Of a stretch of 64,000 nt of DNA, positions 1 through 64,000 are shown one piece after another. The stretch is taken from assembly GCA_023053545.1 (NCBI GenBank), contig JAKZAN010000074.1:100325-164324 (forward strand), given 5' to 3'. Within the stretch, counting starts at the first letter, position 1, and every line of letters starts with the position of its first letter. Position numbers and translations under genes: made by a program. The notes under the pieces are model-generated. The model saw only the letters and a list, made by a program, of their open reading frames with translations. It made no database searches and was not told where the DNA came from. The stretch comes from Lepidurus packardi (lineage: Eukaryota > Arthropoda > Branchiopoda > Notostraca > Triopsidae).

Positions 1-1
1 G

Positions 2-20338: not shown

Positions 20339-20341
20339 ATT

Positions 20342-20359
20342 TGGTGCCGTGACCAGGAT
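20342..20359 (+). other. Primer-binding site of BEL-1 copy b
   Basis: TGGTGCCGTGACCAGGAT, three bases after the LTR. By position it is the tRNA primer site. I could not assign the tRNA with confidence; it resembles tRNA-Arg-type sites with a one-base difference. It overlaps the gag start codon by two bases. Confidence 0.65.
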
Positions 20360-23239: not shown

Positions 23240-23573
23240 AATGTACTTTAAAATTACCCAGGTTCCTATAATCTAATCGTTTGAAATTCCCGCCCCTTTG
23301 CTGTCCCTAGAGTCCCGAACCTCACCAAGGTTCGGAGAGTTGGCAGCCTTACTCCTTTGTTTTCAAGTTCCGTTTGTTTCTAGATAACTCTCGGACTCTG
23401 GCCCCCTCTCAGCCAGCGTGGCATGATAACGCACGTGTTATTCATCCACCAAGTGATATCAAATAAATTCGTTCAATCGTCAATGGGTCTTAAGTATCAT
23501 TCATATATCCCACATCAGCACTAATCAAACACAACGCAGGAATCATTACATTTATACACCAAGATTAACGACA
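23224..23573 (+). repeat. 3' LTR of BEL-1 copy b
   Basis: 350 bp, TGTCGT...ACGACA, with all four 3'-type marker bases. It is followed by the TTACA duplication and satellite A. Confidence 0.96.
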
Positions 23574-39943: not shown

Positions 39944-40208
39944 TGTCGCAGATGGAAACCGCGAGGGACACATGTTTAAACTTCCCGCGGTCCACTGTGA
40001 CGTAACGGCCAATGGAGACAACGGTCGCCCCCGTAGAGCCTGGGTTCGGGGCGAACGTTTTTTGTGTTCGTTGTTGGCTGAACAGAGTGAATGAATGTTA
40101 ACCTTTTTGGCTCTTGTTTTTTTGGTGTATTTTCATTTAGTTAAAGATAATAAATTACTCTATTAAAAAGTATAGTTCCCTGTCATCGTAAGTGAATTAT
40201 CGGTGACA
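39944..40208 (+). repeat. 3' LTR of BEL-2 copy b
   Basis: 265 bp, TGTCGCAG...GGTGACA, followed by GACTT and satellite B. Confidence 0.93.
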
Positions 40209-42384
40209 GACTTAATTCATAATTACTGACTTAATTCATGAATTAATTACTTAATTAATAAATTAATGACTTAATTAAATAACTACGGACGTAATTCATG
40301 AATTACTGACCTATTTAACGAATTTGTGACTTAATTCATGAATTACCTGACTTAATTCATGAACTACTGACTTAATTCATGAACTACTGACTTAATTCAT
40401 GAATTACTGACTTAATTCATGAATTAATGACTTAATTCATGAATTAATGACTTAATTCATGAATTAATTACTTAATTCATGAATTACTGACTTAATTCAT
40501 GTATTACTGAGTTAATTCATGAATTACTGTCTTAATTCATGAATTACTGACTTAATTCCTGAAATACTGACATAATTCATGAATTACTGACTTAATTCAT
40601 GAAAAACTGACTTACTTCATGAAATACTGACTTAATTCATGAATTACTCACTTAGTTCATGAATTAATCACTTAATTCATTCATTTCTGACTTAATTCCT
40701 GAACTATTGACTTAATTCATGAATTACTGACTTATTTCATGAATAACTGACTTAATTCATGAATTACTCACTTAATTCATGCATTTCTGACTTAATTCTT
40801 GAACTATTGAATTAATTCATGAATTACTGACTTATTTCATGAATAACTGACTTAATTCATGAATTACTCACTTAATTCATGCATTTCTGACTTAATTCTT
40901 GAACTATTGACTTAATTCATGAATTACTGACTTATTTCATGAATAACTGACTTAATTAATGAATTCCTGACTTAAATTATGAATTACTGAAATAGTTAAT
41001 GAATTAATGAATTGAATCATAAATTACTGACTTATTTAAATAAGTACGGACTTAGTTCATAAATTACTGACTTAATTCATAAATTACAGAATTTATTCAT
41101 GAATTAACTGACTTAATTCACAAAATAATGACTTAATTCATGAACTACTGACTAATTCATGAATTACTGACTTAATTCATGAATTACGGACTTAATTCAT
41201 GAATTAATGACTTAATTCATGAATTACTGATTTAATTCATGAATTACTGACTTAATTCATGAATTACTGACTTAATTCATGAATTACTGACTTAATTCAT
41301 GAATTACTGACTTAATTCATGAAATACTGACTAACTTCATGAAATACTGGCTTAATTCATGAAATACTGACTTAATTCATGAACTACTTACTTAATTCAC
41401 GAATTACTCAATAAATTCATGAATTACTCACTTAATTCATGAATTAATCACTTAATTCATGCATTTCTGACTTAATTCTTGAACTATTGAATTAATTCAT
41501 GAATTACTGACTTATTTCATGAATAACTGACTTATTTAATGAATTCCTGACTTAAATAATGAATTACTGAAATAGTTAATGAATTAATGAATTGAATCAT
41601 AGATTACTGACTTATTTAAATAACTACGGACTTAGTTCATAAATTACTGACTTAATTCATAAATTACAGACTTTATTCATGAATTAACTGACTTAATTCA
41701 TGAACTACTGACTTAATTCATGAACTACTAACTTAATTCATGAATTACTCACTTAATTCATGAATTACTGACTTAATTCATGAATTACTGACTTAATTCA
41801 TGAATTACTGACTTAATTCATAATTACTGACTTTATTCATGAAAAACTGTCTTAATTCATGAATTACTGACTTAATTAACTAATTACTGACTTAATTCAT
41901 GAATTACTGACTTAATTCATGAAATACTGACTGAATTCACAAAATACTGACTTAATTCATGAACTACTGACTAATTCATGAATTACTGACTTAATTCATG
42001 AATTACTGACTTAATTCATGAATTAGTGATTTAATTCATGAATTACTGACTTAATTAATGAATTCCTGACTTAATTCATGAATTCATGACTTAATTCATG
42101 AATTACTGACTTAATTCATGAATTACTGACTTAATTAATGAATTGCTGACTTAATTCATGAATTACTGACTAAATATAGAATTACTGACTTAATTCATGA
42201 ATTACTGACTTAATTAATGAATTGCTGACTTACTTCATGAAATACTGACTTAATTCATGAAATACTGACTTAATTCATTAACTACTTACTTAATTCACGA
42301 ATTAACACTTAATTCATGAATTACTCACTTAATTCATGCATTTCTGACTTAATTCTTGAACTATTGACTTAATTCATGAATTAC
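40209..42384. repeat. Satellite B array, right arm, module copy 2
   Basis: Colinear with 17399-19574 at offset 22,810. One substitution was noticed (41750 C, 18940 G). It ends in the same ATTAC junction with satellite A. No gene. Confidence 0.96.
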
Positions 42385-42798
42385 AAGGAATTTCATTGAA
42401 ATTTCAAGGAAATTTCAGCTAAAATTACAAGCAAATTTCAAGGAAATTTCAATGAAATTTCAGTTTAATTTCAATAAGATTTCGAGGAAATTTCAGGTAA
42501 AATTAGAAGCAAATTTCAAGGAAATTTCATTGAAATTTCAGGTAAAATTACAAGCATATTTCAACGAAATTTCAATGAAATTTCAGTGTAATTTCAATAA
42601 GATTTCGAGGAAATTTCAGCTAAAATTACAAGCAAATTTCATTGAAATTCCAAGGAAATTTCAAGGAAATTTCATTGAAATTTCAGGTAAAATTACAAGC
42701 ATATTTCAACGAAATTTCAATAAGATTTCGAGGAAATTTCAGGTAAAATTACAAGCAAATTTCAATGAAATTTCATTGAAATTTCAGGTAAAATTACA
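42385..42798. repeat. Satellite A block left of the BEL-1 tandem
   Basis: Duplicate of 19575-19988 with one substitution (42462). It ends in TTACA (42794-42798), the left target duplication of the BEL-1 tandem. Confidence 0.96.
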
Positions 42799-43148
42799 TG
42801 TCGTGAATTTCTAGAATGTACTTTAAAATTACCCAGGTTCATATAATCTAATCGTTTGAAATTCCCGCCCCTTTGCTGTCCCTAGAGTCCCGAACCTCAC
42901 CAAGGTTCGGAGGGTTTGCAGCCTTACTCCTTTGTTTTCAAGTTCCGTTTGTTTCTAGATAACTCTCGGACTCTGGCCCCCTCTCAGCCAGCGTGGCATG
43001 ATAACGCACGTGTTATTCATCCACCAAGTGATATCAAATAAATTCGTTCAATCGTCAATGGGTCTTAAGTATCATTCATATATCCCACATCAGCACTAAT
43101 CAAACACAACGCAGGAATCATTACATTTATCCACCAAGATTAACGACA
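42799..43148 (+). repeat. First LTR of the BEL-1 tandem (5' type)
   Basis: Carries TTCATATA, GAGGGTTTG and TTATCCACC, as the 5' LTR of copy b does. Confidence 0.96.
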
Positions 43149-43151
43149 ATT

Positions 43152-43169
43152 TGGTGCCGTGACCAGGAT
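43152..43169 (+). other. Primer-binding site of BEL-1 copy c
   Basis: TGGTGCCGTGACCAGGAT, three bases after the LTR; tRNA not assigned. Confidence 0.65.
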
Positions 43170-45159
43170 GGGTCGAACGTCAGGACAACCTCTGGAAAGG
43201 TCCAAGACGAAGTCAAGATTGCTGGAAAGAAGAATCGAGACCACACTAGACGACATTGAGCAACATGAAGGAGGAGAGCCAGAAGTCATGGATCAGCTGT
43301 ACTCGATAGAAGCACACCTCCAGGAACTGAAGCTAATTCATCGAGATATTGAAGAGAAAATACCGCTGTCCGAGCTAGAAGAAATCACTGAGAAGCAGCT
43401 AGATACGTTTAGTTCATTTCAAATCAGGCTTATACAAGCCAAGCGACGACATTCCACTCAGTCCTCGAGCCCAACTAGTCAGCCGAGCCCTAATCCCCCC
43501 GATACCAGAAAACATTCCGTATTACCAAAGTTAAGTCTACCAACCTTTGAAGACGATATTTTGCAATGGGCAGAATTCTGGGACGCATTCACTGAAGTAC
43601 ACGAGAGCCCAGAGATACCCGCCGCTCGCAAATTTAATTATTTGGCTGGGCAGCTCAAAGGAGCCTCTCTGAAAGTCATTGGTGGTCTTTCCCACACCTC
43701 GGCGAACTATCCCACGGCTGTGGAACTACTCAAAGATCGTTATGCGAAGCCACGTAAGGTGGTAAAGGCGCACATTCGGTCCCTTCTCTTTCTAAAGCAA
43801 CCAGATCACTCAACATCCACACTTCGTTCCTTCCTAGAAATCATTTTGACTTCCGTCCGCGCTCTCGAAACCCTCGGGAAAAACTCTGAAGAATTCGGAG
43901 AATTCCTAGTTTGTATTCTGGAAGAGAAGTTGACTTCAATCACCATAAGCAACATGGCAAGATCGTTTGGTTCAACAGATTGGAATCTCGAACAATTCTG
44001 TACGCAGTTGAAGAACGAAATTGAAGTCCTGGAAACAAGTCCCACCTCGCCGTCCGCGAATTCAAGCAGAAAACCACCATCGAAGAACCAACCAACACCT
44101 CAATCCTCCGCTGCAGCTCTCAGTCTCGGTATCAAAGACAAGAGATGTCCGTTCTGCTCCGGTTCCCATTCCCCCGTTGCCTGTACGTCATACACCAACA
44201 TGGAAGATAGGCTCAAAATCGCAAAGGAGAAACGTCTTTGCTTTAATTGTCTAGCCGCGAGCGGACATTTGAAGGTCTCCGACTGTCCATCCAAATTTAC
44301 GTGTCATCATTGCCACAAAAAACACCATACCAGTTTACACTCGCCGAAGAAGACACCTACGCAGCCCAACGAGTCGACAACAGTGATGGTAACTGGTACA
44401 GTAAACTGCATACCAAATGGATCATCCCTAATTCGTTCCATCGCTTGGATTGTTCGGTTTGTTGCGAACTGTCGTGGATCCGGACACTCCGGCCCCTTGT
44501 CAACTGAAGAACTAACCAACGCCGAGATCAAATTACTGTTCTACGTGCAAGCTCGCCACCTTTCAGCTGAATTGGATTACCTGAATAATCCCATGAAATC
44601 GAACATTCCTTCGCAAGTAAGAACTTTGGATTTGTTCCTGGATCAAAATGGACTAATTCGAAGTCGTGGACGCCTTTCAAACGCTTCACTTTCTCCAGAT
44701 GCAAAGTATCCCATATTGATCCCGAAGACTTCACGTCTCGCCAGCTTGATTGTTCGACATTTTCATGCCGTTTCGTTCCATGCCGGAGTAAATACAACTG
44801 TTGCAAATCTACGAGAGAATTTCTGGATCCCCTCTGCTCGACAGGTTGCCAAGAGCACCTTGCGAAACTGCGTCACTTGTCGTAGACACACCGGTCTACC
44901 CTATCCTCAACCTGCTACCGCTCCTCTCCCCGAGTTCAGAGTAGCTCCCGCACGCCCATTTGAAGTGTCTGGCGTCGACTTCGCCGGCCCTCTTTTCGTC
45001 CGGAACTCCAAATCTAAGTCAACAACGCCAGTGTACCTCTGCCTATTTACGTGTGCCAGCACACGCGCCGTACATCTGGAACTCGTAAGCGATCTGTCCA
45101 CGAAGACCTTCCTCCTTGCGTTTCGCGTTTCGCCAGTTTATACGACTTTCCACGGTTAA
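43168..45159 (+). pseudogene. Gag-integrase fusion ORF, BEL-1 copy c
   Basis: 663 residues, same sequence as the ORF at 20358-22349: coiled coil, DUF1759-type Gag domain, zinc knuckles, in-frame loss of protease/RT/RNase H, integrase zinc domain and first catalytic Asp. The ORF is cut short by the shared frameshift near 45120-45132. Confidence 0.9.
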
Positions 45160-46049
45160 TGATGTCAGACAACGCCATGACCTTTGTTTCGGCCGCCAGT
45201 CAAGTCAAATTCCTCGCCACGGATTCAAATCTACATGATAATCTAGCCCAGTTTCATACCTCCTGGCAGTTTATCCCTAAACGCGCGCCGTGGTTTGGAG
45301 GAATATGGGAACGGTTAATTGGCGTCACGAAATCACTCTTGCGAAAGACCTTGGGTCGTTCCCTACTCACCTTTGATGAACTCCGTACCGTTATTATGGA
45401 GATTACCACGATCCTGAACGATCGACCTTTGACATATGTATCGTCAGACATCAGTGACGATAACGCTGTCACCCCTTCCACTCTCATTTTTGGACGTCGC
45501 ATTCGTTCACCCATCTTTGCCAACCTGGAAACCACCACTCTGGACCCTACCTATAATGAATCAGTGCTTCCGAAACGTTTCGTTTTACAAAAACGGTTAA
45601 TTTCGAAGTATTGGCAACGCTGGAGCGACGAATATTTAAAGGCATTACGAGAATTTCACATCTGTCGTCCACAATCTGGAAATCGGACCATCCGAGTTGG
45701 TGATGTCGTCCTTATCCATTCCGAGAAAAAGCGAATATATTGGCCTGTCGCGTACGTTGAAAAACTTCTTCCAGGTCCTGACGGGATTGTTCGTGCCGCA
45801 ATCATTAGCACAGCAAATGGAGTCACCAATCGACCAGTGACTAAGTTGTATCCTTTAGAAGTCAATCACCCCGTGATCGAAGAATCCGAGTCTATCCCTG
45901 CCCAGTTACCACAAGTTGAAGATCATTCACCTCCCCTACGCCGGAATCGAAGAGATGCCACTGAACGAGCCCTTGGAAGAATCCGTGAATGGATTAGATA
46001 TGAAAGGGCGCCCGAGCAGCCCGGCCGGGAGGATGTCGTGAATTTCTAG
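45126..46049 (+). pseudogene. Integrase C-terminal half in shifted frame, BEL-1 copy c
   Basis: Second Asp, Glu and DUF5641-type domain as in copy b. The stop lies inside the middle LTR, so the last codons come from the mosaic LTR, which is 3'-type at that point. Confidence 0.88.
46027..46033 (+). other. Polypurine tract of BEL-1 copy c
   Basis: GGGAGGA abutting the middle LTR. Confidence 0.7.
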
Positions 46050-46383
46050 AATGTACTTTAAAATTACCCAGGTTCCTATAATCTAATCGTTTGAAATTCC
46101 CGCCCCTTTGCTGTCCCTAGAGTCCCGAACCTCACCAAGGTTCGGAGAGTTGGCAGCCTTACTCCTTTGTTTTCAAGTTCCGTTTGTTTCTAGATAACTC
46201 TCGGACTCTGGCCCCCTCTCAGCCAGCGTGGCATGATAACGCACGTGTTATTCATCCACCAAGTGATATCAAATAAATTCGTTCAATCGTCAATGGGTCT
46301 TAAGTATCATTCATATATCCCACATCAGCACTAATCAAACACAACGCAGGAATCATTACATTTATCCACCAAGATTAACGACA
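46034..46383 (+). repeat. Middle LTR of the BEL-1 tandem (recombinant)
   Basis: The marker at 46076 is C (3' type), 46148 and 46152 are A and G (3' type), and 46366 is C (5' type). The left part therefore derives from a 3' LTR and the right part from a 5' LTR, with the exchange between 46152 and 46366. This is the product expected from unequal crossing over between the two LTRs of sister or allelic copies. Confidence 0.93.
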
Positions 46384-46386
46384 ATT

Positions 46387-46404
46387 TGGTGCCGTGACCA
46401 GGAT
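46387..46404 (+). other. Primer-binding site of BEL-1 copy d
   Basis: TGGTGCCGTGACCAGGAT, three bases after the middle LTR. Confidence 0.65.
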
Positions 46405-48394
46405 GGGTCGAACGTCAGGACAACCTCTGGAAAGGTCCAAGACGAAGTCAAGATTGCTGGAAAGAAGAATCGAGACCACACTAGACGACATTGAGCAACA
46501 TGAAGGAGGAGAGCCAGAAGTCATGGATCAGCTGTACTCGATAGAAGCACACCTCCAGGAACTGAAGCTAATTCATCGAGATATTGAAGAGAAAATACCG
46601 CTGTCCGAGCTAGAAGAAATCACTGAGAAGCAGCTAGATACGTTTAGTTCATTTCAAATCAGGCTTATACAAGCCAAGCGACGACATTCCACTCAGTCCT
46701 CGAGCCCAACTAGTCAGCCGAGCCCTAATCCCCCCGATACCAGAAAACATTCCGTATTACCAAAGTTAAGTCTACCAACCTTTGAAGACGATATTTTGCA
46801 ATGGGCAGAATTCTGGGACGCATTCACTGAAGTACACGAGAGCCCAGAGATACCCGCCGCTCGCAAATTTAATTATTTGGCTGGGCAGCTCAAAGGAGCC
46901 TCTCTGAAAGTCATTGGTGGTCTTTCCCACACCTCGGCGAACTATCCCACGGCTGTGGAACTACTCAAAGATCGTTATGCGAAGCCACGTAAGGTGGTAA
47001 AGGCGCACATTCGGTCCCTTCTCTTTCTAAAGCAACCAGATCACTCAACATCCACACTTCGTTCCTTCCTAGAAATCATTTTGACTTCCGTCCGCGCTCT
47101 CGAAACCCTCGGGAAAAACTCTGAAGAATTCGGAGAATTCCTAGTTTGTATTCTGGAAGAGAAGTTGACTTCAATCACCATAAGCAACATGGCAAGATCG
47201 TTTGGTTCAACAGATTGGAATCTCGAACAATTCTGTACGCAGTTGAAGAACGAAATTGAAGTCCTGGAAACAAGTCCCACCTCGCCGTCCGCGAATTCAA
47301 GCAGAAAACCACCATCGAAGAACCAACCAACACCTCAATCCTCCGCTGCAGCTCTCAGTCTCGGTATCAAAGACAAGAGATGTCCGTTCTGCTCCGGTTC
47401 CCATTCCCCCGTTGCCTGTACGTCATACACCAACATGGAAGATAGGCTCAAAATCGCAAAGGAGAAACGTCTTTGCTTTAATTGTCTAGCCGCGAGCGGA
47501 CATTTGAAGGTCTCCGACTGTCCATCCAAATTTACGTGTCATCATTGCCACAAAAAACACCATACCAGTTTACACTCGCCGAAGAAGACACCTACGCAGC
47601 CCAACGAGTCGACAACAGTGATGGTAACTGGTACAGTAAACTGCATACCAAATGGATCATCCCTAATTCGTTCCATCGCTTGGATTGTTCGGTTTGTTGC
47701 GAACTGTCGTGGATCCGGACACTCCGGCCCCTTGTCAACTGAAGAACTAACCAACGCCGAGATCAAATTACTGTTCTACGTGCAAGCTCGCCACCTTTCA
47801 GCTGAATTGGATTACCTGAATAATCCCATGAAATCGAACATTCCTTCGCAAGTAAGAACTTTGGATTTGTTCCTGGATCAAAATGGACTAATTCGAAGTC
47901 GTGGACGCCTTTCAAACGCTTCACTTTCTCCAGATGCAAAGTATCCCATATTGATCCCGAAGACTTCACGTCTCGCCAGCTTGATTGTTCGACATTTTCA
48001 TGCCGTTTCGTTCCATGCCGGAGTAAATACAACTGTTGCAAATCTACGAGAGAATTTCTGGATCCCCTCTGCTCGACAGGTTGCCAAGAGCACCTTGCGA
48101 AACTGCGTCACTTGTCGTAGACACACCGGTCTACCCTATCCTCAACCTGCTACCGCTCCTCTCCCCGAGTTCAGAGTAGCTCCCGCACGCCCATTTGAAG
48201 TGTCTGGCGTCGACTTCGCCGGCCCTCTTTTCGTCCGGAACTCCAAATCTAAGTCAACAACGCCAGTGTACCTCTGCCTATTTACGTGTGCCAGCACACG
48301 CGCCGTACATCTGGAACTCGTAAGCGATCTGTCCACGAAGACCTTCCTCCTTGCGTTTCGCGTTTCGCCAGTTTATACGACTTTCCACGGTTAA
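46403..48394 (+). pseudogene. Gag-integrase fusion ORF, BEL-1 copy d
   Basis: 663 residues with the same translation as copies b and c, including the in-frame deletion of the middle of pol. It ends at the shared frameshift (about 48355-48367). It lies directly downstream of the mosaic LTR, which would act as its 5' LTR. Confidence 0.9.
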
Positions 48395-49284
48395 TGATGT
48401 CAGACAACGCCATGACCTTTGTTTCGGCCGCCAGTCAAGTCAAATTCCTCGCCACGGATTCAAATCTACATGATAATCTAGCCCAGTTTCATACCTCCTG
48501 GCAGTTTATCCCTAAACGCGCGCCGTGGTTTGGAGGAATATGGGAACGGTTAATTGGCGTCACGAAATCACTCTTGCGAAAGACCTTGGGTCGTTCCCTA
48601 CTCACCTTTGATGAACTCCGTACCGTTATTATGGAGATTACCACGATCCTGAACGATCGACCTTTGACATATGTATCGTCAGACATCAGTGACGATAACG
48701 CTGTCACCCCTTCCACTCTCATTTTTGGACGTCGCATTCGTTCACCCATCTTTGCCAACCTGGAAACCACCACTCTGGACCCTACCTATAATGAATCAGT
48801 GCTTCCGAAACGTTTCGTTTTACAAAAACGGTTAATTTCGAAGTATTGGCAACGCTGGAGCGACGAATATTTAAAGGCATTACGAGAATTTCACATCTGT
48901 CGTCCACAATCTGGAAATCGGACCATCCGAGTTGGTGATGTCGTCCTTATCCATTCCGAGAAAAAGCGAATATATTGGCCTGTCGCGTACGTTGAAAAAC
49001 TTCTTCCAGGTCCTGACGGGATTGTTCGTGCCGCAATCATTAGCACAGCAAATGGAGTCACCAATCGACCAGTGACTAAGTTGTATCCTTTAGAAGTCAA
49101 TCACCCCGTGATCGAAGAATCCGAGTCTATCCCTGCCCAGTTACCACAAGTTGAAGATCATTCACCTCCCCTACGCCGGAATCGAAGAGATGCCACTGAA
49201 CGAGCCCTTGGAAGAATCCGTGAATGGATTAGATATGAAAGGGCGCCCGAGCAGCCCGGCCGGGAGGATGTCGTGAATTTCTAG
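48361..49284 (+). pseudogene. Integrase C-terminal half in shifted frame, BEL-1 copy d
   Basis: Second Asp (SDNAMTF), Glu (GGIWERL) and DUF5641-type domain as in the other copies. The stop TAG lies in the last LTR. Confidence 0.88.
49262..49268 (+). other. Polypurine tract of BEL-1 copy d
   Basis: GGGAGGA abutting the last LTR. Confidence 0.7.
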
Positions 49285-49618
49285 AATGTACTTTAAAATT
49301 ACCCAGGTTCCTATAATCTAATCGTTTGAAATTCCCGCCCCTTTGCTGTCCCTAGAGTCCCGAACCTCACCAAGGTTCGGAGAGTTGGCAGCCTTACTCC
49401 TTTGTTTTCAAGTTCCGTTTGTTTCTAGATAACTCTCGGACTCTGGCCCCCTCTCAGCCAGCGTGGCATGATAACGCACGTGTTATTCATCCACCAAGTG
49501 ATATCAAATAAATTCGTTCAATCGTCAATGGGTCTTAAGTATCATTCATATATCCCACATCAGCACTAATCAAACACAACGCAGGAATCATTACATTTAT
49601 ACACCAAGATTAACGACA
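49269..49618 (+). repeat. Last LTR of the BEL-1 tandem (3' type)
   Basis: All four 3'-type markers. It is followed by TTACA and satellite A. Confidence 0.96.
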
Positions 49619-52600
49619 TTACAAGCATATTTCAACGAAATTTTAATGAAATTTCAGGTAAAATTACAAGCATATTTCAACGAAATTTCAATGAAATTTC
49701 AGTGTAATTTCAATAAGATTTCGAGGAAATGTCAAGTAAAATTACAAGCAAATTTCGAGGAAATTTCATTGAAATTTCAGGTAAAATTACAAGCATATTT
49801 CAACGAAATTTCAATGATATTTCAGTGTAATTTCAATAAGATTTCGAGGAAGTTTCAGGTAAAATTACAAGCAAATTTTAAGGAAATTTCATTGAAATTT
49901 CAGGTAAAATTAAAAGCATATTTCAACGAAATTTCAATGAAATTTCAGTGTAATTTCAATAAGATTTTGAGGAAATTTCAGGTAAAATTACAAACAAATT
50001 CCAAGGAAATTTCATTGAAATTTCAGATAAAATTACAAGCATATTTCAACGAAATTTCAATGAAATTTCAGTGTAATTTCAATAAGATTTCGAGGAAATT
50101 TCAGGTAAAATTACAAGCAAATTTCAAGGAAATTTCATTGAAATTTCAGGTAAAATTACAAGCATATTTCAACGAAATTTCAATGAAATTTCAGTGTAAT
50201 TTCAATAAGATTTTGAGGAAATTTCAGGTAAAATTACAAGCAAATTTCAAGGAAATATCATTGAAATTTCAGGTAAAATTAAAAGCATATTTCAACGAAA
50301 TTTCAATGAAATTTCAGTGTAATTTCAATAAGATTTTGAGGAAATTTCAGGTAAAATTACAAACAAATTCCAAGGAAATTTCATTGAAATTTCAGGTAAA
50401 ATTACAAGCATATTTCAACGAAATTTCAATGAAATTTCAGTGTAATTTCAATAAGATTTCGAGGAAATTTCAGGTAAAATTACAAGCAAATTTCAAGGAA
50501 ATTTCATTGAAATTTCAGGTAAAATTACAAGCATATTTCAACGAAATTTCAATGAAATTTCAGTGTAATTTCAATAAGATTTTGAGGAAATTTCAGGTAA
50601 AATTACAAGCAAATTTCAAGGAAATTTCATTGAAATTTCAGGCAAAATTAAAGCATATTTCAACGAAATTTCAATGAAATTTCAGTGTAATTTCAATAGA
50701 TTTCGAGGAAATTTCAGGTAAAATTACAAGCAAATTTCAGTGTAATTTCAATAAGATTTTGAGGAAATTTCAGGTAAAATTACAAGCAAATTTCAAGGAA
50801 ATTTCATTGAAATTTCAGGCAAAATTAAAGCATATTTCAACGAAATTTCAATGAAATTTCAGTGTAATTTCAATAAGATTTCGAGGAAATTTCATTTAAA
50901 ATTACAAGCAAATTCCAAGGAAATTTCATTGAAATTTCAGGTAAAATTACAAGCATATTTCAACGAAATTTCAATGAAATTTCAGTGTAATTTCAATAAG
51001 ATTTCGAGGAAATTTCAGGTAAAATTACAAGCAAATTTCAAGGAAATTTCATTGAAATTTCAGGTAAAATTACAAGCATATTTCAACGAAATTTCAATGA
51101 AATTTCAGTGTAATTTCAATAAGATTTTGAGGAAATTTCAGGTAAAATTACAAGCAAATTTCAAGGAAATTTCATTGAAATTTCAGGTAAAATTAAAAGC
51201 ATATTTCAACGAAATTTCAATGAAATTTCAGTGTAATTTCAATAAGATTTTGAGGAAATTTCAGGTAAAATTACAAACAAATTCCAAGGAAATTTCATTG
51301 AAATTTCAGGTAAAATTACAAGCATATTTCAACGAAATTTCAATGAAATTTCAGTGTAATTTCAATAAGATTTCGAGGAAATTTCAGGTAAAATTACAAG
51401 CAAATTTCAAGGAAATTTCATTGAAATTTCAGGTAAAATTACAAGCATATTTCAACGAAATTTCAATGAAATTTCAGTGTAATTTCAATAAGATTTTGAG
51501 GAAATTTCAGGTAAAATTACAAGCAAATTTCAAGGAAATTTCATTGAAATTTCAGGCAAAATTAAAGCATATTTCAACGAAATTTCAATGAAATTTCAGT
51601 GTAATTTCAATAGATTTCGAGGAAATTTCAGGTAAAATTACAAGCAAATTTCAGTGTAATTTCAATAAGATTTTGAGGAAATTTCAGGTAAAATTACAAG
51701 CAAATTTCAAGGAAATTTCATTGAAATTTCAGGCAAAATTAAAGCATATTTCAACGAAATTTCAATGAAATTTCAGTGTAATTTCAATAAGATTTCGAGG
51801 AAATTTCATTTAAAATTACAAGCAAATTTCAATGAAATTTCATTGAAATTTCAGGTAAAATTACAAGCATATTTCAACGAAATTTCAATGAAATTTCAGT
51901 GTAATTTCAATAAGATTTCAAGGAAATTTCAGGTAAAATTACAAGCAAATTTCAAGGAAATTTCATTGAAATTTCAAGTAAAATTACAAGCATATTTCAA
52001 CGAAATTTCAATGAAATTTCAGTGTAATTTCAATAAGATTTCGAGGAAATTTCAGGTAAAATTACAAACAAATTTCAAGGAAATTTCATTGAAATTTAAG
52101 GTAAAATTACAAGCATATTTCAACGAAATTTCAATGAAATTTCAGTGTAATTTCAATAAGATTTCGAGGAAATGTCAAGTAAAATTACAAGCAAATTTCG
52201 AGGAAATTTCATTGAAATTTCAGGTAAAATTACAAGCATATTTCAACGAAATTTCAATGATATTTCAGTGTAATTTCAATAAGATTTCGAGGAAGTTTCA
52301 GGTAAAATTTCAAGCAAATTTCAAGGAAATTTCATTGAAATTTCAGGTAAAATTAAAAGCATATTTCAACGAAATTTCAATGAAATTTCAGTGTAATTTC
52401 AATAAGATTTTGAGGAAATTTCAGGTAAAATTACAAACAAATTCCAAGGAAATTTCATTGAAATTTCAGGTAAAATTACAAGCATATTTCAACGAAATTT
52501 CAATGAAATTTCAGTGTAATTTCAATAAGATTTCGAGGAAATTTCAGGTAAAATTACAAGCAAATTTCAAGGAAATTTCATTGAAATTTCAGGTAAAATT

Positions 52601-55600
52601 ACAAGCATATTTCAACGAAATTTCAATGAAATTTCAGTGTAATTTCAATAAGATTTTGAGGAAATTTCAGGTAAAATTACAAGCAAATTTCAAGGAAATT
52701 TCATTGAAATTTCAGGCAAAATTAAAGCATATTTCAACGAAATTTCAATGAAATTTCAGTGTAATTTCAATAGATTTCGAGGAAATTTCAGGTAAAATTA
52801 CAAGCAAATTTCAGTGTAATTTCAATAAGATTTTGAGGAAATTTCAGGTAAAATTACAAGCAAATTTCAAGGAAATTTCATTGAAATTTCAGGCAAAATT
52901 AAAGCATATTTCAACGAAATTTCAATGAAATTTCAGTGTAATTTCAATAAGATTTCGAGGAAATTTCATTTAAAATTACAAGCAAATTTCAATGAAATTT
53001 CATTGAAATTTCAGGTAAAATTACAAGCATATTTCAACGAAATTTCAATGAAATTTCAGTGTAATTTCAATAAGATTTCAAGGAAATTTCAGGTAAAATT
53101 ACAAGCAAATTTCAAGGAAATTTCATTGAAATTTCAAGTAAAATTACAAGCATATTTCAACGAAATTTCAATGAAATTTCAGTGTAATTTCAATAAGATT
53201 TCGAGGAAATTTCAGGTAAAATTACAAACAAATTTCAAGGAAATTTCATTGAAATTTAAGGTAAAATTACAAGCATATTTCAACGAAATTTCAATGAAAT
53301 TTCAGTGTAATTTCAATAAGATTTCGAGGAAATTTCAGGAAAAATTACAAGCAAATTTCAAGGAAATTTCATTGAAATTTGAGGTAAAAATACAAGCATA
53401 TTTCAACGAAATTTCAATGAAATTTCATTTAAAATTACAAGCATATTTCAACGTAATTTCAATGAAATTTCACTGTAATTTCAATAAGATTTCGAGGAAA
53501 TTTCAAGTAAAATTACAAGCAAATTTCAAGGAAATTTCATTGAAATTTCCGGTAAAATTACAAGCATATTTCAACGAAATTTCAATGAAATTTCAGTGTA
53601 ATTTCAATAAGATTTCGAGGAAATTTCAGGTAAAATTACAAGCAAATTTCAAGGAAATTTCATTGAAATTTCAGGCAAAATTAAAGCATATTTCAACGAA
53701 ATTTCAATGAAATTTCAGTGTAATTTCAATAGATTTCGAGGAAATTTCAGGTAAAATTACAAGCAAATTTCAAGGAAATTTCATTGAAATTTCAGGCAAA
53801 ATTAAAGCATATTTCAACGAAATTTCAATGAAATTTCAGTGTAATTTCAATAAGATTTCGAGGAAATTTCATTTAAAATTACAAGCAAATTTCAATGAAA
53901 TTTCATTGAAATTTCAGGTAAAATTACAAGCATATTTCAACGAAATTTCAATGAAATTTCAGTGTAATTTCAATAAGATTTCAAGGAAATTTCAGGTAAA
54001 ATTACAAGCAAATTTCAAGGAAATTTCATTGAAATTTCAAGTAAAATTACAAGCATATTTCAACGAAATTTCAATGAAATTTCAGTGTAATTTCAATAAG
54101 ATTTCGAGGAAATTTCAGGTAAAATTACAAACAAATTTCAAGGAAATTTCATTGAAATTTAAGGTAAAATTACAAGCATATTTCAACGAAATTTCAATGA
54201 AATTTCAGTGTAATTTCAATAAGATTTCGAGGAAATTTCAGGAAAAATTACAAGCAAATTTCAAGGAAATTTCATTGAAATTTGAGGTAAAAATACAAGC
54301 ATATTTCAACGAAATTTCAATGAAATTTCATTTAAAATTACAAGCATATTTCAACGTAATTTCAATGAAATTTCACTGTAATTTCAATAAGATTTCGAGG
54401 AAATTTCAAGTAAAATTACAAGCAAATTTCAAGGAAATTTCATTGAAATTTCAGGTAAAATTACAAGCATATTTCAACGAAATTTCAATGAAATTTCAGT
54501 GTAATTTCAATAAGATTTCAAGGAAGTTTCAGGTAAAATTACAAGCAAATTTCAAGTAAATTTCATTGAAATTTCAAGAAAAATTACAAGCATATTTCAA
54601 CGAAATTTCAATGAAATTTCAGTGTAATTTCAATAAAATTTCGAGGAAATTTCAGGTAAAATTACAAGCAAATTTCAATGAAATTTCATTGAAATTTCAG
54701 GTAAAATTAAAAACATATTTCAACGAAATTTCAATGAAATTTCAGTGTAATTTCAATAAGATTTCGAGGAAATTTCAGGTAAAATTACAAGCAAATTTCA
54801 AGGAAATTTCATTGAAATTTCAGGTAAAATTACAAGCATATTTCAACGAAATTTCAATGAAATTTCAGTGTAATTTCAATAAGATTTTGAGGAAATTTCA
54901 GGTAAAATTACAAGCAAATTTCAAGGAAATTTCATTGAAATTTCAGGCAAAATTAAAGCATATTTCAACGAAATTTCAATGAAATTTCAGTGTAATTTCA
55001 ATAGATTTCGAGGAAATTTCAGGTAAAATTACAAGCAAATTTCAGTGTAATTTCAATAAGATTTTGAGGAAATTTCATTTAAAATTACAAGCAAATTTCA
55101 ATGAAATTTCATTGAAATTTCAGGTAAAATTACAAGCATATTTCAACGAAATTTCAATGAAATTTCAGTGTAATTTCAATAAGATTTCAAGGAAATTTCA
55201 GGTAAAATTACAAGCAAATTTCAAGGAAATTTCATTGAAATTTCAAGTAAAATTACAAGCATATTTCAACGAAATTTCAATGAAATTTCAGTGTAATTTC
55301 AATAAGATTTTGAGGAAATTTCAGGTAACATTACAAGCAAATTTCAAAGAAATTTCAGTGTAATTTCAATAAGATTTCGCGGAAATTTCAGGTAAAATTA
55401 CAAGCAAATTTCAGGGAAATTCCAAGGAAATTTCAAGGAAATTTCATTGAAATTTCAGGTAAAATTACAAGCATATTTCAACAAAATTTCAATGAAATTT
55501 GAGTGTAATTTCAATAAAATTTCAAGGAAATTTCATTGAAATTTCAGGTAAAATTACAAGCATATTTCAACGAAATTTCAATGAAATTTCAGTGTAATTT

Positions 55601-58600
55601 CAATAAGATTTCGAGGAAATTTCAGGTAAAATTACAAGCAAATTTCAGTGTAATTTCAATAAGATTTTGAGGAAATTTCAGGTAAAATTACAAGCAAATT
55701 TCAAGGAAATTTCATTGAAATTTCAGGCAAAATTAAAGCATATTTCAACGAAATTTCAATGAAATTTCAGTGTAATTTCAATAAGATTTCAAGGAAATTT
55801 CAGGTAAAATTACAAGCAAATTTCAAGGAAATTTCATTGAAATTTCAAGTAAAATTACAAGCATATTTCAACGAAATTTCAATGAAATTTCAGTGTAATT
55901 TCAATTAGATTTCGAGGAAATTTCAGGTAAAATTACAAACAAATTTCAAGGAAATTTCATTGAAATTTAAGGTAAAATTACAAGCATATTTCAACGAAAT
56001 TTCAATGAAATTTCAGTGTAATTTCAATAAGATTTCGAGGAAATTTCAGGAAAAATTACAAGCAAATTTCAAGGAAATTTCATTGAAATTTGAGGTAAAA
56101 ATACAAGCATATTTCAACGAAATTTCAATGAAATTTCATTTAAAATTACAAGCATATTTCAACGTAATTTCAATGAAATTTCACTGTAATTTCAATAAGA
56201 TTTCGAGGAAATTTCAAGTAAAATTACAAGCAAATTTCAAGGAAATTTCATTGAAATTTCAGGTAAAATTACAAGCATATTTCAACGAAATTTCAATGAA
56301 ATTTCAGTGTAATTTCAATAAGATTTCAAGGAAGTTTCAGGTAAAATTACAAGCAAATTTCAAGTAAATTTCATTGAAATTTCAAGTAAAATTACAAGCA
56401 TATTTCAACGAAATTTCAATGAAATTTCAGTGTAATTTCAATAAAATTTCGAGGAAATTTCAGGTAAAATTACAAGCAAATTTCAATGAAATTTCATTGA
56501 AATTTCAGGTAAAATTAAAAGCATATTTCAACGAAATTTCAATGAAATTTCAGTGTAATTTCAATAAGATTTCGAGGAAATTTCAGGTAAAATTACAAGC
56601 AAATTTCAATGAAATTTCATTGAAATTTCATGTAAAATTACAAGCATATTTCAACGAAATTTCAATGAAATTTCAGGTAAAATTACAAGCATATTTCAAC
56701 GTAATTTCAATGAAATTTCAGTGTAATTTCAATAAGATTTCTAGGAAATTTCAAGTTAAATTACAAGCAAATTTCAAGGAAATTTCATTTAAATTTCAAG
56801 TAAAATTACAAGCATATTTCAACGAAATTTCAATGAAATTTCAGTGTAATTTCAATAAGATTTTGAGGAAATTTCAGGTAACATTACAAGCAAATTTCAA
56901 AGAAATTTCAGTGTAATTTCAATAAGATTTCGCGGAAATTTCAGGTAAAATTACAAACAAATTTCAAGGAAATTTCATTGAAATTTCAGGTAAAATTAAA
57001 GCATATTTCAACGAAATTTCAATGAAATTTCAGTGTAATTTCAATAAGATTTCAAGGAAATTTCAGGTAAAATTACAAGCAAATTTCAAGGAAATTTCAT
57101 TGAAATTTCAAGTAAAATTACAAGCATATTTCAACGAAATTTCAATGAAATTTCAGTGTAATTTCAATAAGATTTCGAGGAAATTTCAGGTAAAATTACA
57201 AACAAATTTCAAGGAAATTTCATTGAAATTTAAGGTAAAATTACAAGCATATTTCAACGAAATTTCAATGAAATTTCAGTGTAATTTCAATAAGATTTCG
57301 AGGAAATTTCAGGAAAAATTACAAGCAAATTTCAAGGAAATTTCATTGAAATTTGAGGTAAAAATACAAGCATATTTCAACGAAATTTCAATGAAATTTC
57401 ATTTAAAATTACAAGCATATTTCAACGAAATTTCAATGAAATTTCAGTGTAATTTCAATAAGATTTCGAGGAAATTTCAAGTAAAATTACAAGCAAATTT
57501 CAAGGAAATTTCATTGAAATTTCAGGTAAAATTACAAGCATATTTCAACGAAATTTCAATGAAATTTCAGTGTAATTTCAATAAGATTTCAAGGAAGTTT
57601 CAGGTAAAATTACAAGCAAATTTCAAGTAAATTTCATTGAAATTTCAAGTAAAATTACAAGCATATTTCAACGAAATTTCAATGAAATTTCAGTGTAATT
57701 TCAATAAAATTTCGAGGAAATTTCAGGTAAAATTACAAGCAAATTTCAAGGAAATTTCATTGAAATTTAAGGTAAAATTACAAGCATATTTCAACGAAAT
57801 TTCAATGAAATTTCAGTGTAATTTCCATAAGATTTCGAGGAAATTTCAGGAAAAATTACAAGCAAATTTCAAGGAAATTTCATTGAAATTTGAGGTAAAA
57901 ATACAAGCATATTTCAACGAAATTTCAATGAAATTTCATTTAAAATTACAAGCATATTTCAACGTAATTTCAATGAAATTTCACTGTAATTTCAATAAGA
58001 TTTCGAGGAAATTTCAAGTAAAATTACAAGCAAATTTCAAGGAAATTTCATTGAAATTTCCGGTAAAATTACAAGCATATTTCAACGAAATTTCAATGAA
58101 ATTTCAGTGTAATTTCAATAAGATTTCGAGGAAATTTCAGGTAAAATTACAAGCAAATTTCAAGGAAATTTCATTGAAATTTCAGGCAAAATTAAAGCAT
58201 ATTTCAACGAAATTTCAATGAAATTTCAGTGTAATTTCAATAGATTTCGAGGAAATTTCAGGTAAAATTACAAGCAAATTTCAAGGAAATTTCATTGAAA
58301 TTTCAGGCAAAATTAAAGCATATTTCAACGAAATTTCAATGAAATTTCAGTGTAATTTCAATAAGATTTCGAGGAAATTTCATTTAAAATTACAAGCAAA
58401 TTTCAATGAAATTTCATTGAAATTTCAGGTAAAATTACAAGCATATTTCAACGAAATTTCAATGAAATTTCAGTGTAATTTCAATAAGATTTCAAGGAAA
58501 TTTCAGGTAAAATTACAAGCAAATTTCAAGGAAATTTCATTGAAATTTCAAGTAAAATTACAAGCATATTTCAACGAAATTTCAATGAAATTTCAGTGTA

Positions 58601-61600
58601 ATTTCAATAAGATTTCGAGGAAATTTCAGGTAAAATTACAAACAAATTTCAAGGAAATTTCATTGAAATTTAAGGTAAAATTACAAGCATATTTCAACGA
58701 AATTTCAATGAAATTTCAGTGTAATTTCAATAAGATTTCGAGGAAATTTCAGGAAAAATTACAAGCAAATTTCAAGGAAATTTCATTGAAATTTGAGGTA
58801 AAAATACAAGCATATTTCAACGAAATTTCAATGAAATTTCATTTAAAATTACAAGCATATTTCAACGTAATTTCAATGAAATTTCACTGTAATTTCAATA
58901 AGATTTCGAGGAAATTTCAAGTAAAATTACAAGCAAATTTCAAGGAAATTTCATTGAAATTTCAGGTAAAATTACAAGCATATTTCAACGAAATTTCAAT
59001 GAAATTTCAGTGTAATTTCAATAAGATTTCAAGGAAGTTTCAGGTAAAATTACAAGCAAATTTCAAGTAAATTTCATTGAAATTTCAAGAAAAATTACAA
59101 GCATATTTCAACGAAATTTCAATGAAATTTCAGTGTAATTTCAATAAAATTTCGAGGAAATTTCAGGTAAAATTACAAGCAAATTTCAATGAAATTTCAT
59201 TGAAATTTCAGGTAAAATTACAAGCATATTTCAACGAAATTTCAATGAAATTTCAGGTAAAATTACAAGCATATTTCAACGTAATTTCAATGAAATTTCA
59301 GTGTAATTTCAATAAGATTTCGAGGAAATTTCAAGCAAAATTACAAACAAATTTCAAGGAAATTTCATTGAAATTTCAGGTAAAATTACAAGCATATTTC
59401 AACGAAATTTCAATGAAATTTCAGTGTAATTTCAATAAGATTTCGAGGAAATTTCAGGAAAAATTACAAGCAAATTTCAAGGAAATTTCATTGAAATTTG
59501 AGGTAAAATTACAAGCATATTTCGACGAAATTTCAATGAAATTTCAGTGTAATTTCAATAAGATTTCGAGGAAATTTCAGGTAAAATTACAAGCAAATTT
59601 CAATGAAATTTCATTGAAATTTCATGTAAAATTACAAGCATATTTCAACGAAATTTCAATGAAATTTCAGGTAAAATTACAAGCATATTTCAACGTAATT
59701 TCAATGAAATTTCAGTGTAATTTCAATAAGATTTCGAGGAAATTTCAGGTAAAATTACAAGCAAATTTCAATGAAATTTCATTGAAATTTCAAGTAAAAT
59801 TACAAGCATATTTCAACGAAATTTCAATGAAATTTCAGTGTAATTTCAATAAGATTTCGAGGAAATTTCAGGTAAAATTACAAGCAAATTTCAAGGAAAT
59901 TTCATTGAAATTTAAGGTAAAATTACAAGCATATTTCAACGAAATTTCAATGAAATTTCAGTGTAATTTCAATAAGATTTCGAGGAAATTTCAGGAAAAA
60001 TTACAAGCAAATTTCAAGGAAATTTCATTGAAATTTGAGGTAAAAATACAAGCATATTTCAACGAAATTTCAATGAAATTTCATTTAAAATTACAAGCAT
60101 ATTTCAACGTAATTTCAATGAAATTTCACTGTAATTTCAATAAGATTTCGAGGAAATTTCAAGTAAAATTACAAGCAAATTTCAAGGAAATTTCATTGAA
60201 ATTTCCGGTAAAATTACAAGCATATTTCAACGAAATTTCAATGAAATTTCAGTGTAATTTCAATAAGATTTCGAGGAAATTTCAGGTAAAATTACAAGCA
60301 AATTTCAAGGAAATTTCATTGAAATTTCAGGCAAAATTAAAGCATATTTCAACGAAATTTCAATGAAATTTCAGTGTAATTTCAATAGATTTCGAGGAAA
60401 TTTCAGGTAAAATTACAAGCAAATTTCAAGGAAATTTCATTGAAATTTCAGGCAAAATTAAAGCATATTTCAACGAAATTTCAATGAAATTTCAGTGTAA
60501 TTTCAATAAGATTTCGAGGAAATTTCATTTAAAATTACAAGCAAATTTCAATGAAATTTCATTGAAATTTCAGGTAAAATTACAAGCATATTTCAACGAA
60601 ATTTCAATGAAATTTCAGTGTAATTTCAATAAGATTTCAAGGAAATTTCAGGTAAAATTACAAGCAAATTTCAAGGAAATTTCATTGAAATTTCAAGTAA
60701 AATTACAAGCATATTTCAACGAAATTTCAATGAAATTTCAGTGTAATTTCAATAAGATTTCGAGGAAATTTCAGGTAAAATTACAAACAAATTTCAAGGA
60801 AATTTCATTGAAATTTAAGGTAAAATTACAAGCATATTTCAACGAAATTTCAATGAAATTTCAGTGTAATTTCAATAAGATTTCGAGGAAATTTCAGGTA
60901 AAATTACAAACAAATTTCAAGGAAATTTCATTGAAATTTAAGGTAAAATTACAAGCATATTTCAACGAAATTTCAATGAAATTTCAGTGTAATTTCAATA
61001 AGATTTCGAGGAAATTTCAGGAAAAATTACAAGCAAATTTCAAGGAAATTTCATTGAAATTTGAGGTAAAAATACAAGCATATTTCAACGAAATTTCAAT
61101 GAAATTTCATTTAAAATTACAAGCATATTTCAACGTAATTTCAATGAAATTTCACTGTAATTTCAATAAGATTTCGAGGAAATTTCAAGTAAAATTACAA
61201 GCAAATTTCAAGGAAATTTCATTGAAATTTCAGGTAAAATTACAAGCATATTTCAACGAAATTTCAATGAAATTTCAGTGTAATTTCAATAAGATTTCAA
61301 GGAAGTTTCAGGTAAAATTACAAGCAAATTTCAAGTAAATTTCATTGAAATTTCAAGAAAAATTACAAGCATATTTCAACGAAATTTCAATGAAATTTCA
61401 GTGTAATTTCAATAAAATTTCGAGGAAATTTCAGGTAAAATTACAAGCAAATTTCAATGAAATTTCATTGAAATTTCAGGTAAAATTACAAGCATATTTC
61501 AACGAAATTTCAATGAAATTTCAGGTAAAATTACAAGCATATTTCAACGTAATTTCAATGAAATTTCAGTGTAATTTCAATAAGATTTCGAGGAAATTTC

Positions 61601-64000
61601 AAGCAAAATTACAAACAAATTTCAAGGAAATTTCATTGAAATTTCAGGTAAAATTACAAGCATATTTCAACGAAATTTCAATGAAATTTCAGTGTAATTT
61701 CAATAAGATTTCGAGGAAATTTCAGGAAAAATTACAAGCAAATTTCAAGGAAATTTCATTGAAATTTGAGGTAAAATTACAAGCATATTTCGACGAAATT
61801 TCAATGAAATTTCAGTGTAATTTCAATAAGATTTCGAGGAAATTTCAGGTAAAATTACAAGCAAATTTCAATGAAATTTCATTGAAATTTCATGTAAAAT
61901 TACAAGCATATTTCAACGAAATTTCAATGAAATTTCAGGTAAAATTACAAGCATATTTCAACGTAATTTCAATGAAATTTCAGTGTAATTTCAATAAGAT
62001 TTCGAGGAAATTTCAGGTAAAATTACAAGCAAATTTCAATGAAATTTCATTGAAATTTCAAGTAAAATTACAAGCATATTTCAACGAAATTTCAATGAAA
62101 TTTCAGTGTAATTTCAATAAGATTTCGAGGAAATTTCAGGTAAAATTACAAGCAAATTTCAAGGAAATTTCATTGAAATTTAAGGTAAAATTACAAGCAT
62201 ATTTCAACGAAATTTCAATGAAATTTCAGTGTAATTTCAATAAGATTTCGAGGAAATTTCAGGAAAAATTACAAGCAAATTTCAAGGAAATTTCATTGAA
62301 ATTTGAGGTAAAAATACAAGCATATTTCAACGAAATTTCAATGAAATTTCATTTAAAATTACAAGCATATTTCAACGTAATTTCAATGAAATTTCACTGT
62401 AATTTCAATAAGATTTCGAGGAAATTTCAAGTAAAATTACAAGCAAATTTCAAGGAAATTTCATTGAAATTTCCGGTAAAATTACAAGCATATTTCAACG
62501 AAATTTCAATGAAATTTCAGTGTAATTTCAATAAGATTTCGAGGAAATTTCAGGTAAAATTACAAGCAAATTTCAAGGAAATTTCATTGAAATTTCAGGC
62601 AAAATTAAAGCATATTTCAACGAAATTTCAATGAAATTTCAGTGTAATTTCAATAGATTTCGAGGAAATTTCAGGTAAAATTACAAGCAAATTTCAAGGA
62701 AATTTCATTGAAATTTCAGGCAAAATTAAAGCATATTTCAACGAAATTTCAATGAAATTTCAGTGTAATTTCAATAAGATTTCGAGGAAATTTCATTTAA
62801 AATTACAAGCAAATTTCAATGAAATTTCATTGAAATTTCAGGTAAAATTACAAGCATATTTCAACGAAATTTCAATGAAATTTCAGTGTAATTTCAATAA
62901 GATTTCAAGGAAATTTCAGGTAAAATTACAAGCAAATTTCAAGGAAATTTCATTGAAATTTCAAGTAAAATTACAAGCATATTTCAACGAAATTTCAATG
63001 AAATTTCAGTGTAATTTCAATAAGATTTCGAGGAAATTTCAGGTAAAATTACAAACAAATTTCAAGGAAATTTCATTGAAATTTAAGGTAAAATTACAAG
63101 CATATTTCAACGAAATTTCAATGAAATTTCAGTGTAATTTCAATAAGATTTCGAGGAAATTTCAGGAAAAATTACAAGCAAATTTCAAGGAAATTTCATT
63201 GAAATTTGAGGTAAAAATACAAGCATATTTCAACGAAATTTCAATGAAATTTCATTTAAAATTACAAGCATATTTCAACGTAATTTCAATGAAATTTCAC
63301 TGTAATTTCAATAAGATTTCGAGGAAATTTCAAGTAAAATTACAAGCAAATTTCAAGGAAATTTCATTGAAATTTCAGGTAAAATTACAAGCATATTTCA
63401 ACGAAATTTCAATGAAATTTCAGTGTAATTTCAATAAGATTTCAAGGAAGTTTCAGGTAAAATTACAAGCAAATTTCAAGTAAATTTCATTGAAATTTCA
63501 AGAAAAATTACAAGCATATTTCAACGAAATTTCAATGAAATTTCAGTGTAATTTCAATAAAATTTCGAGGAAATTTCAGGTAAAATTACAAGCAAATTTC
63601 AATGAAATTTCATTGAAATTTCAGGTAAAATTACAAGCATATTTCAACGAAATTTCAATGAAATTTCAGGTAAAATTACAAGCATATTTCAACGTAATTT
63701 CAATGAAATTTCAGTGTAATTTCAATAAGATTTCGAGGAAATTTCAAGCAAAATTACAAACAAATTTCAAGGAAATTTCATTGAAATTTCAGGTAAAATT
63801 ACAAGCATATTTCAACGAAATTTCAATGAAATTTCAGTGTAATTTCAATAAGATTTCGAGGAAATTTCAGGAAAAATTACAAGCAAATTTCAAGGAAATT
63901 TCATTGAAATTTGAGGTAAAATTACAAGCATATTTCGACGAAATTTCAATGAAATTTCAGTGTAATTTCAATAAGATTTCGAGGAAATTTCAGGTAAAAT
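49619..64000. repeat. Large satellite A array running off the window end
   Basis: 14.4 kb, roughly 117 units of 123 bp. It starts like 2243 and 23574 but gains two extra 123-bp units near 50250-50500. Variant units with one-base losses (ATTAAAGC, CAATAGATT) recur near 50646, 50823, 51560, 51737, 52720, 52898, 53690, 53806, 54953, 55734, 56995, 58192, 58313, 60330, 60458, 62600 and 62725, marking higher-order blocks of uneven length. A disturbed patch lies at 55330-55560. Open frames of up to 429 codons are by-products of the period. No gene or insertion is seen. Confidence 0.97.
58339..64000. repeat. Higher-order repeat of satellite A, about 2.15 kb (two full units and a partial third)
   Basis: Landmark unit starts at 58339, 60484 and 62752 give periods of 2,145 and 2,268 bp. 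The difference is exactly one 123-bp unit, visible as a duplicated block near 60781-61026 in the second unit. A related start at 53828 shares the first 730 bp. The third unit is cut by the window end. Confidence 0.9.

What the first reader, a model, noticed from the sequence alone, without database searches (positions are those of the whole stretch)
46034..46383. Mosaic middle LTR records an unequal crossover inside a retrotransposon
The 5' and 3' LTRs of BEL-1 differ at four positions. The middle LTR of the tandem has the 3' type at the first three and the 5' type at the last, locating the exchange between 46152 and 46366. Only one target duplication surrounds the tandem. This fits crossing over between the 3' LTR of one chromatid and the 5' LTR of the other. 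Integration or rolling amplification of a one-LTR circle is an alternative, but it does not by itself explain sharing of the same target site with copy b.
Basis: partly seen in the sequence, partly recalled or inferred. Interest (0 to 1): 0.7.

Follow-up and report, generated by a model that had tools for sequence, protein, structure and literature searches.

The report
Doubled retrotransposon sharing one middle LTR
One copy of a damaged retrotransposon has been doubled so that two copies share a hybrid middle repeat, most likely by recombination between its end repeats; this is a well-known kind of event, and the hybrid pattern by itself does not single out the exact route.

Summary
In detail: LTR-int-LTR-int-LTR (42799-49618), one TTACA duplication, middle LTR 3'-type at LTR columns 43, 115, 119 and 5'-type at 333. 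Outside this contig, 14 of 15 aligned LTR sequences at each marker carry the middle LTR's state, the other having a gap. So the middle LTR is ancestral, and an unmutated LTR would look the same as a "mosaic". Other evidence rescues recombination: three single copies carry the same 5' and 3' types, and the tandem's two internal regions are identical (0 of 2885), where an old tandem predicts about 22 differences (P about 2e-4; about 1e-3 if two neighbouring changes were one event). The doubling is therefore recent and joined a 3'-LTR start to a 5'-LTR end. Exchange within one element on sisters or homologues is likeliest. Exchange between neighbouring ~21-25 kb units, a circle, a cDNA or an assembly misjoin would give the same LTR, and the shared TSD cannot separate them because the units are copies of one insertion. 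New member of a known kind.

The parts
42794..42798 (.). left target-site duplication TTACA
   Evidence: flanks of u4 5' LTR
42799..43148 (+). 5' LTR of the tandem; derived at LTR columns 43, 115, 119
43149..46033 (+). left internal region, 2885 bp; DUF1759 and Integrase_H2C2/DUF5641 parts present, protease/RT part deleted
44415..44421 (+). junction of the ~2.3 kb internal deletion (7 bp not aligned to relatives) in the left copy; same junction in the right copy at 47650-47656
46034..46383 (+). middle LTR: 3'-type at 46076, 46148, 46152 and 5'-type at 46366; equals family state at all four
46153..46365 (+). 213-bp identical stretch within which the 3'-LTR-to-5'-LTR join lies
46384..49268 (+). 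right internal region, identical to the left one
49269..49618 (+). 3' LTR of the tandem; derived at LTR column 333
49619..49623 (.). right target-site duplication TTACA
19989..23573 (+). single copy of the same insertion in the neighbouring unit (copy b, u3), same LTR types, identical internal region
1..2242 (+). right part of a further single copy (u2; starts at C63:98982, before the window); its 3' LTR is 1893-2242
42379..42798 (+). satellite A (123-bp repeat) left of the insertion
49618..64000 (+). satellite A right of the insertion, running to the contig end; first 260 bp after the LTR equal the other units, then a longer array

Best explanation
A non-autonomous, internally deleted BEL/Pao element inserted once into satellite A, making the TTACA duplication. 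Its LTRs then diverged (three changes in the 5' LTR, one in the 3' LTR). A ~21-25 kb block carrying it was amplified into at least four units. In the right-most unit on the contig, homologous DNA exchange joined the beginning of a 3' LTR to the end of a 5' LTR inside a 213-bp identical stretch. This doubled the element and left one shared, recombinant middle LTR. Likeliest partners are the two LTRs of the same element on sister chromatids or homologues, misaligned by 3.2 kb; a 3' LTR x 5' LTR exchange between neighbouring units gives the same product and is counted within this explanation (about 0.49 and 0.25). Shown: anatomy, marker states, their polarity, single TSD, identity of the internal regions, unit structure. 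Inferred: DNA-level exchange, its partners, and the order of amplification and doubling.
For: Markers run 3'-type to 5'-type from left to right, the order an LTR x LTR exchange requires. The same 5' and 3' LTR types occur in the three single copies on the contig. Five internal regions, two of them in the tandem, are identical over 2885 bp and share one ~2.3 kb deletion that none of the five other copies aligned across that interval has, so both halves of the tandem descend from this one insertion. An old tandem predicts about 22 left/right differences and 0 were seen, P about 2e-4 with rate uncertainty. One TSD outside, none beside the middle LTR. The array has recombined: units differ in spacing (24687, 21331, 22810 bp) and in satellite length. 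Mild support for a same-unit event: the left flank of the tandem carries 4 changes in 9346 bp not found in the other three units, and its right flank is a satellite array unlike that of the others, so both sides look like one separate unit.
Against: The middle LTR is ancestral at all four markers, so the mosaic is not independent proof of exchange. The test against an old tandem rests on only four LTR changes; columns 115 and 119 are 4 bp apart, and if they were one event P rises to about 1.4e-3, with two events in all to about 9e-3. No reciprocal solo LTR flanked by TTACA was seen. No variant separates same-unit exchange from inter-unit exchange, circle reinsertion or cDNA recombination, because the five internal regions are identical. 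The assembly was not checked against reads. The unit network is unrooted, with the tandem-bearing unit at the end of its longest branch, so it does not say whether doubling or loss came last.
Confidence: 0.74

Rival explanations
1. Inter-unit exchange: the 3' LTR of one ~21-25 kb unit recombined with the 5' LTR of the next unit, deleting the spacer between them and leaving the doubled element. It is a sub-case of LTR x LTR exchange (its 0.25 is part of the 0.74 above) that the reader did not consider.
For: The contig holds four head-to-tail units with the same insertion. Because the units are copies of one insertion, the product keeps TTACA on both sides and the same mosaic LTR, so the usual TSD test (PMC1950507, one section read) cannot exclude it.
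Against: The left flank of the tandem carries 4 private changes in 9346 bp, while u1, u2 and u3 have none there; an interior unit joined to the last one might be expected to match u1-u3. This is weak evidence.
Confidence: 0.25
2. cDNA or one-LTR-circle route: a transcript of this element, reverse transcribed in trans, or a circle excised from it, recombined into the resident element. A cDNA LTR takes U3 from the 3' LTR and U5 from the 5' LTR (general knowledge), so its LTR is 3'-type on the left and 5'-type on the right without any LTR x LTR crossover on the chromosome.
For: Marker 333 lies about 90 bp after the only AATAAA of the LTR (column 239), so it is probably in U5; markers 43-119 could be in U3. 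The pattern fits. Relatives that keep the protease/RT region exist as possible helpers. Integrase-independent tandem formation in yeast is cited in PMC11899658 (passages).
Against: The element lacks the protease/RT region, so it needs expression and a helper. The cDNA would have to enter one specific unit. If transcription starts upstream of column 115 (a TATAA lies at column 44), R would include columns 115 and 119 and should be 5'-type, which it is not.
Confidence: 0.12
3. Assembly artefact: the assembler stepped from a 3' LTR into a 5' LTR through the identical 213 bp and duplicated the element.
For: A misjoin would make exactly this mosaic. The contig is 164 kb long, ends in satellite, and its units share ungapped blocks of 12-17 kb that are more than 99.9% alike.
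Against: Two other contigs fetched from are over 13 Mb long, which suggests long reads; 213 bp, or one 3.2-kb copy, is easily spanned by long reads. The units differ in length and satellite structure, so they were resolved as distinct.
Confidence: 0.08
4. Old tandem: the element was inserted as, or soon became, a doubled element; the middle LTR is an unmutated survivor, and single copies arose by loss through LTR x LTR exchange.
For: The middle LTR has the family state at all four markers (14 of 15 outside LTR sequences at each, the other a gap). Loss by LTR exchange would readily give pure 5'-type and 3'-type LTRs in the singles (66% and 95% of exchange positions). Template-switch tandems with TSDs are proposed in PMC1950507.
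Against: The left and right internal regions are identical over 2885 bp; about 22 differences were expected, P about 2e-4 with rate uncertainty, or 1.4e-3 if the four LTR changes were three events. It needs internal homogenisation that spared the LTRs, plus a loss.
Confidence: 0.03

Closest known systems
Tandem LTR-retrotransposons with shared internal LTRs in plants (PMC11899658; abstract and passages seen)
   Same: Two internal regions and three LTRs, flanking TSD, internal regions 94-99% alike in the two loci described; both recombination and complex insertion considered as origins.
   Different: Those are plant elements, mostly gypsy in rice.
Complex LTR elements of Triticeae (PMC1950507; one section read)
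   Same: Internal LTR described as a chimera of a 3' LTR and a 5' LTR after recombination.
   Different: There, matching TSDs argue for a single integration and against recombination between neighbours. Here the neighbours are copies of one insertion, so that test does not discriminate.
Wukong TRIM tandems of maize (PMC4528315; abstract and passages)
   Different: 532-bp elements; no marker-based polarity in the passages seen.
Ty1 circular DNA with chimeric LTRs in yeast (PMC4751563; passages)
   Same: Breakpoints modelled as LTRs that begin as the downstream LTR and end as the upstream one, the same order as here.
   Different: Extrachromosomal circles, not an integrated tandem.
Kangaroo centromeric LTR tandems (known here only as described in PMC11899658)
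   Same: Tandem LTR elements sharing LTRs, attributed to LTR exchange between sister chromatids or homologues.
   Different: Centromeric repeats; here one doubling only.

Membership tests
BEL/Pao LTR retrotransposon (as a deletion derivative) | BEL/Pao-type protein domains in the internal region | tested here: met
   DUF1759, Integrase_H2C2 and DUF5641 above Pfam cut-offs in the window copy. In the C4 relative the same domains flank Peptidase_A17, 'Pao retrotransposon peptidase'.
BEL/Pao LTR retrotransposon (as a deletion derivative) | family carries the Pao-type peptidase and a reverse transcriptase | tested here: met
   Met in the relative on C4: Peptidase_A17 9.3e-42; RVT_1 5.6e-6, below its cut-off. 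The window copies lack this part through a ~2.3 kb deletion and are non-autonomous.
BEL/Pao LTR retrotransposon (as a deletion derivative) | LTRs TG...CA with a 5-bp target duplication | tested here: met
   TGTCGT...ACGACA and TTACA.
tandem LTR-retrotransposon with shared LTR | LTR-int-LTR-int-LTR in one orientation | tested here: met
tandem LTR-retrotransposon with shared LTR | one target duplication outside, none at the middle LTR | tested here: met
product of LTR x LTR exchange | middle LTR begins as a 3' LTR and ends as a 5' LTR | tested here: met
   but all four states are also ancestral.
product of LTR x LTR exchange | reciprocal solo LTR in the population | not testable with these tools
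   Only one assembly is held; no TTACA-flanked solo LTR among its 25 LTR matches.
product of cDNA recombination | switch of LTR type at the border set by the transcript's ends (U3/R) | tested here: inconclusive
   The switch lies between columns 119 and 333; the transcription start is unknown.

The most novel reading that the evidence does not exclude
The middle LTR is not a chromosomal crossover product but the footprint of reverse transcription (U3 from the 3' LTR, U5 from the 5' LTR): a cDNA of a non-autonomous, deleted BEL element, made with a helper's enzymes, entered its own parental copy by homologous recombination. That would be a sequence-readable case of cDNA recombination in a BEL/Pao element.
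Probability: 0.1. Interest if true: 0.45.

Novelty: new member of a known kind. Interest (0 to 1): 0.24.

Why it matters
The locus is a tidy teaching case: four units of one insertion, one of them doubled, with polarised LTR markers and family outgroups. It shows that a mosaic LTR and a shared TSD do not separate chromosomal crossover from an ancestral LTR, inter-unit deletion, cDNA recombination or misassembly when the surroundings have themselves been amplified. The useful evidence is the comparison of internal divergence with LTR divergence.

Tried and rejected
A self-BLAST of the contig timed out on the satellite and was replaced by k-mer offsets and ungapped runs. The higher divergence of the tandem's right flank (9 differences from u2 and u3 and 8 from u1 in 780 bp, against 4 private ones in 9346 bp on the left) looked at first like a hybrid of two units. 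The right flank proved to be satellite A in shifted register, with near-perfect matches elsewhere in the array, and its first 260 bp equal the other units, so I did not use it as evidence for an inter-unit join. A second apparent tandem (C16:670812-686660) was examined as a parallel. It is a 4958-bp segment of flank, LTR and partial internal region present three times, with breakpoints outside the LTRs, so it is not LTR-mediated (the far end of its first copy was not fetched). The C155 LTR pieces look like one element whose 3' LTR is interrupted, not a tandem. No tRNA gene was found in the window when I looked for a possible primer source. The organism was not identified: the rRNA search failed twice on a machine error. 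Two cited papers were not held. Literature searches were made; I saw in their listings no report on this locus that I recognised, but without the species that says little. PMC12368964 (passages) was looked at and not used. In the polarity count one of the 16 LTR matches outside C63, the 81-bp C254 piece, was left out of the alignment; one search shows it 100% identical to the middle LTR over columns 270-350, so it agrees at 333. The 15 outside LTR sequences come from about seven loci and are not independent.

Full report
What was checked. The window is C63:100325-164324, the right end of a 164-kb contig of a 108.6-Mb genome in 344 contigs. The claimed tandem is real: LTRs at 42799-43148, 46034-46383 and 49269-49618, spacing 3235 bp, TG...CA ends, TTACA on both outer sides, and no duplication beside the middle LTR.

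What the element is. The internal region has DUF1759, Integrase_H2C2 and DUF5641 domains. A relative on C4 has, between these, Peptidase_A17 ('Pao retrotransposon peptidase') and an RVT_1 match below its cut-off. Against five other copies aligned across the region (on C16 twice, C142, C155, C4) the window copies lack about 2.3 kb at one junction. In a genome search across that junction (18 matches) only the five C63 copies matched without a break. It is therefore a non-autonomous deletion derivative of a BEL/Pao element.

The surroundings. The same insertion occurs at four places on C63 (74295-77879, 98982-102566, 120313-123897 and the tandem at 143123-149942), and exact 25-mers of the LTR occur nowhere else on the contig. 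They lie in head-to-tail units spaced 24687, 21331 and 22810 bp. Long blocks are nearly identical, for example 2 differences in 17007 aligned bases between the first two units, with satellite length differences between units. The tandem is in the right-most unit of the contig. Its left flank differs from u3 at 4 and from u1 and u2 at 5 of 9346 positions, while u1 and u2 do not differ. Its right flank equals the others for 260 bp and then runs into a long satellite A array, up to the contig end, instead of the junction to a next unit.

With 15 LTR sequences from outside C63 as outgroups, all that have letters at a marker (14 of 15 at each) carry the state of the middle LTR. So the 5' LTR carries three derived changes, the 3' LTR one, and the middle LTR none. 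A middle LTR that had simply not mutated would show the same 'mosaic'. The pattern is also not improbable under exchange: a join anywhere between columns 119 and 333, about 61% of the LTR, gives it.

Why exchange is still the best reading. If the tandem were as old as the LTR changes, the left and right internal regions should differ at about 22 positions. They differ at 0 of 2885, with a probability of about 2e-4 when the uncertainty of a rate taken from only four LTR changes is included. If columns 115 and 119 changed in one event this becomes 1.4e-3, and with two events in all 9e-3. The five internal copies on the contig are identical and share nine substitutions not seen in the other copies compared (6 of 1265 columns in the 5' part, 3 of 1612 in the 3' part); some of these may predate the insertion. 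The three single copies already carry the 5' and 3' LTR changes. So the doubling most likely happened after the LTRs diverged, from this insertion's own lineage, and the middle LTR had to be built from a 3' LTR start and a 5' LTR end, unless the internal regions were later homogenised.

What cannot be told. Same-element exchange between chromatids, exchange between the 3' LTR of one unit and the 5' LTR of the next, reinsertion of a one-LTR circle, and recombination with a cDNA (U3 from the 3' LTR, U5 from the 5' LTR; general knowledge of reverse transcription) all predict this LTR. TSD agreement, used in the literature to exclude recombination between neighbours (PMC1950507), fails here because the neighbours are copies of one insertion. 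An assembler stepping through the 213-bp identical core would also produce it. A weak hint for a same-unit event is that both flanks of the tandem look like one separate unit, with 4 private changes on the left. The unit network is unrooted with the tandem unit at the end of its longest branch, so gain against loss is settled only by parsimony (one event against two; inference).

Known context. Tandem LTR elements sharing LTRs are common: 266 in a rice pangenome (PMC11899658 abstract), with the origin left open between exchange and complex insertion (passages). Three-LTR Wukong elements in maize were taken to suggest unequal crossing over (PMC4528315). Chimeric LTRs beginning as the downstream and ending as the upstream LTR were modelled for yeast circles (PMC4751563). 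This case is a new member of that kind.

Noticed in passing
window about 33814-40209: A second, different BEL/Pao-like element (DUF1759, zf-CCHC, RVT_1, Peptidase_A17 in two pieces, DUF5641) lies between 20-bp satellite arrays in the left part of the unit; 96-99% copies of most or all of its 35500-39500 stretch lie on C6, C4, C217 and C1.
   Followed up: partly
L017/L018 (C16:670812-686660): Another copy of the same family has a 4958-bp segment (flank, 5' LTR, part of the internal region) present three times with breakpoints outside the LTR: a doubling route that does not use LTRs.
   Followed up: partly
L019/L020 (C155:5532-16458): A family member whose 3' LTR appears split by about 5 kb of other sequence, with LTR columns 204-219 present on both sides; TSD CCTGA outside.
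   Followed up: no
L024 (C49:14910-15258): Solo LTR whose flanks read like the 20-bp satellite, without matching target duplications; possibly a product of exchange between different elements.
   Followed up: no
L025 (C254:22202-22282): An 81-bp end piece of the LTR whose right flank (12 bases read) equals that of the C4 copy's 3' LTR, so it may be a partial duplicate of the C4 locus.
   Followed up: no
C63:77649: The 3' LTR of the left-most unit has one private change at LTR column 120, the only difference seen between corresponding outer LTRs of the four units.
   Followed up: partly
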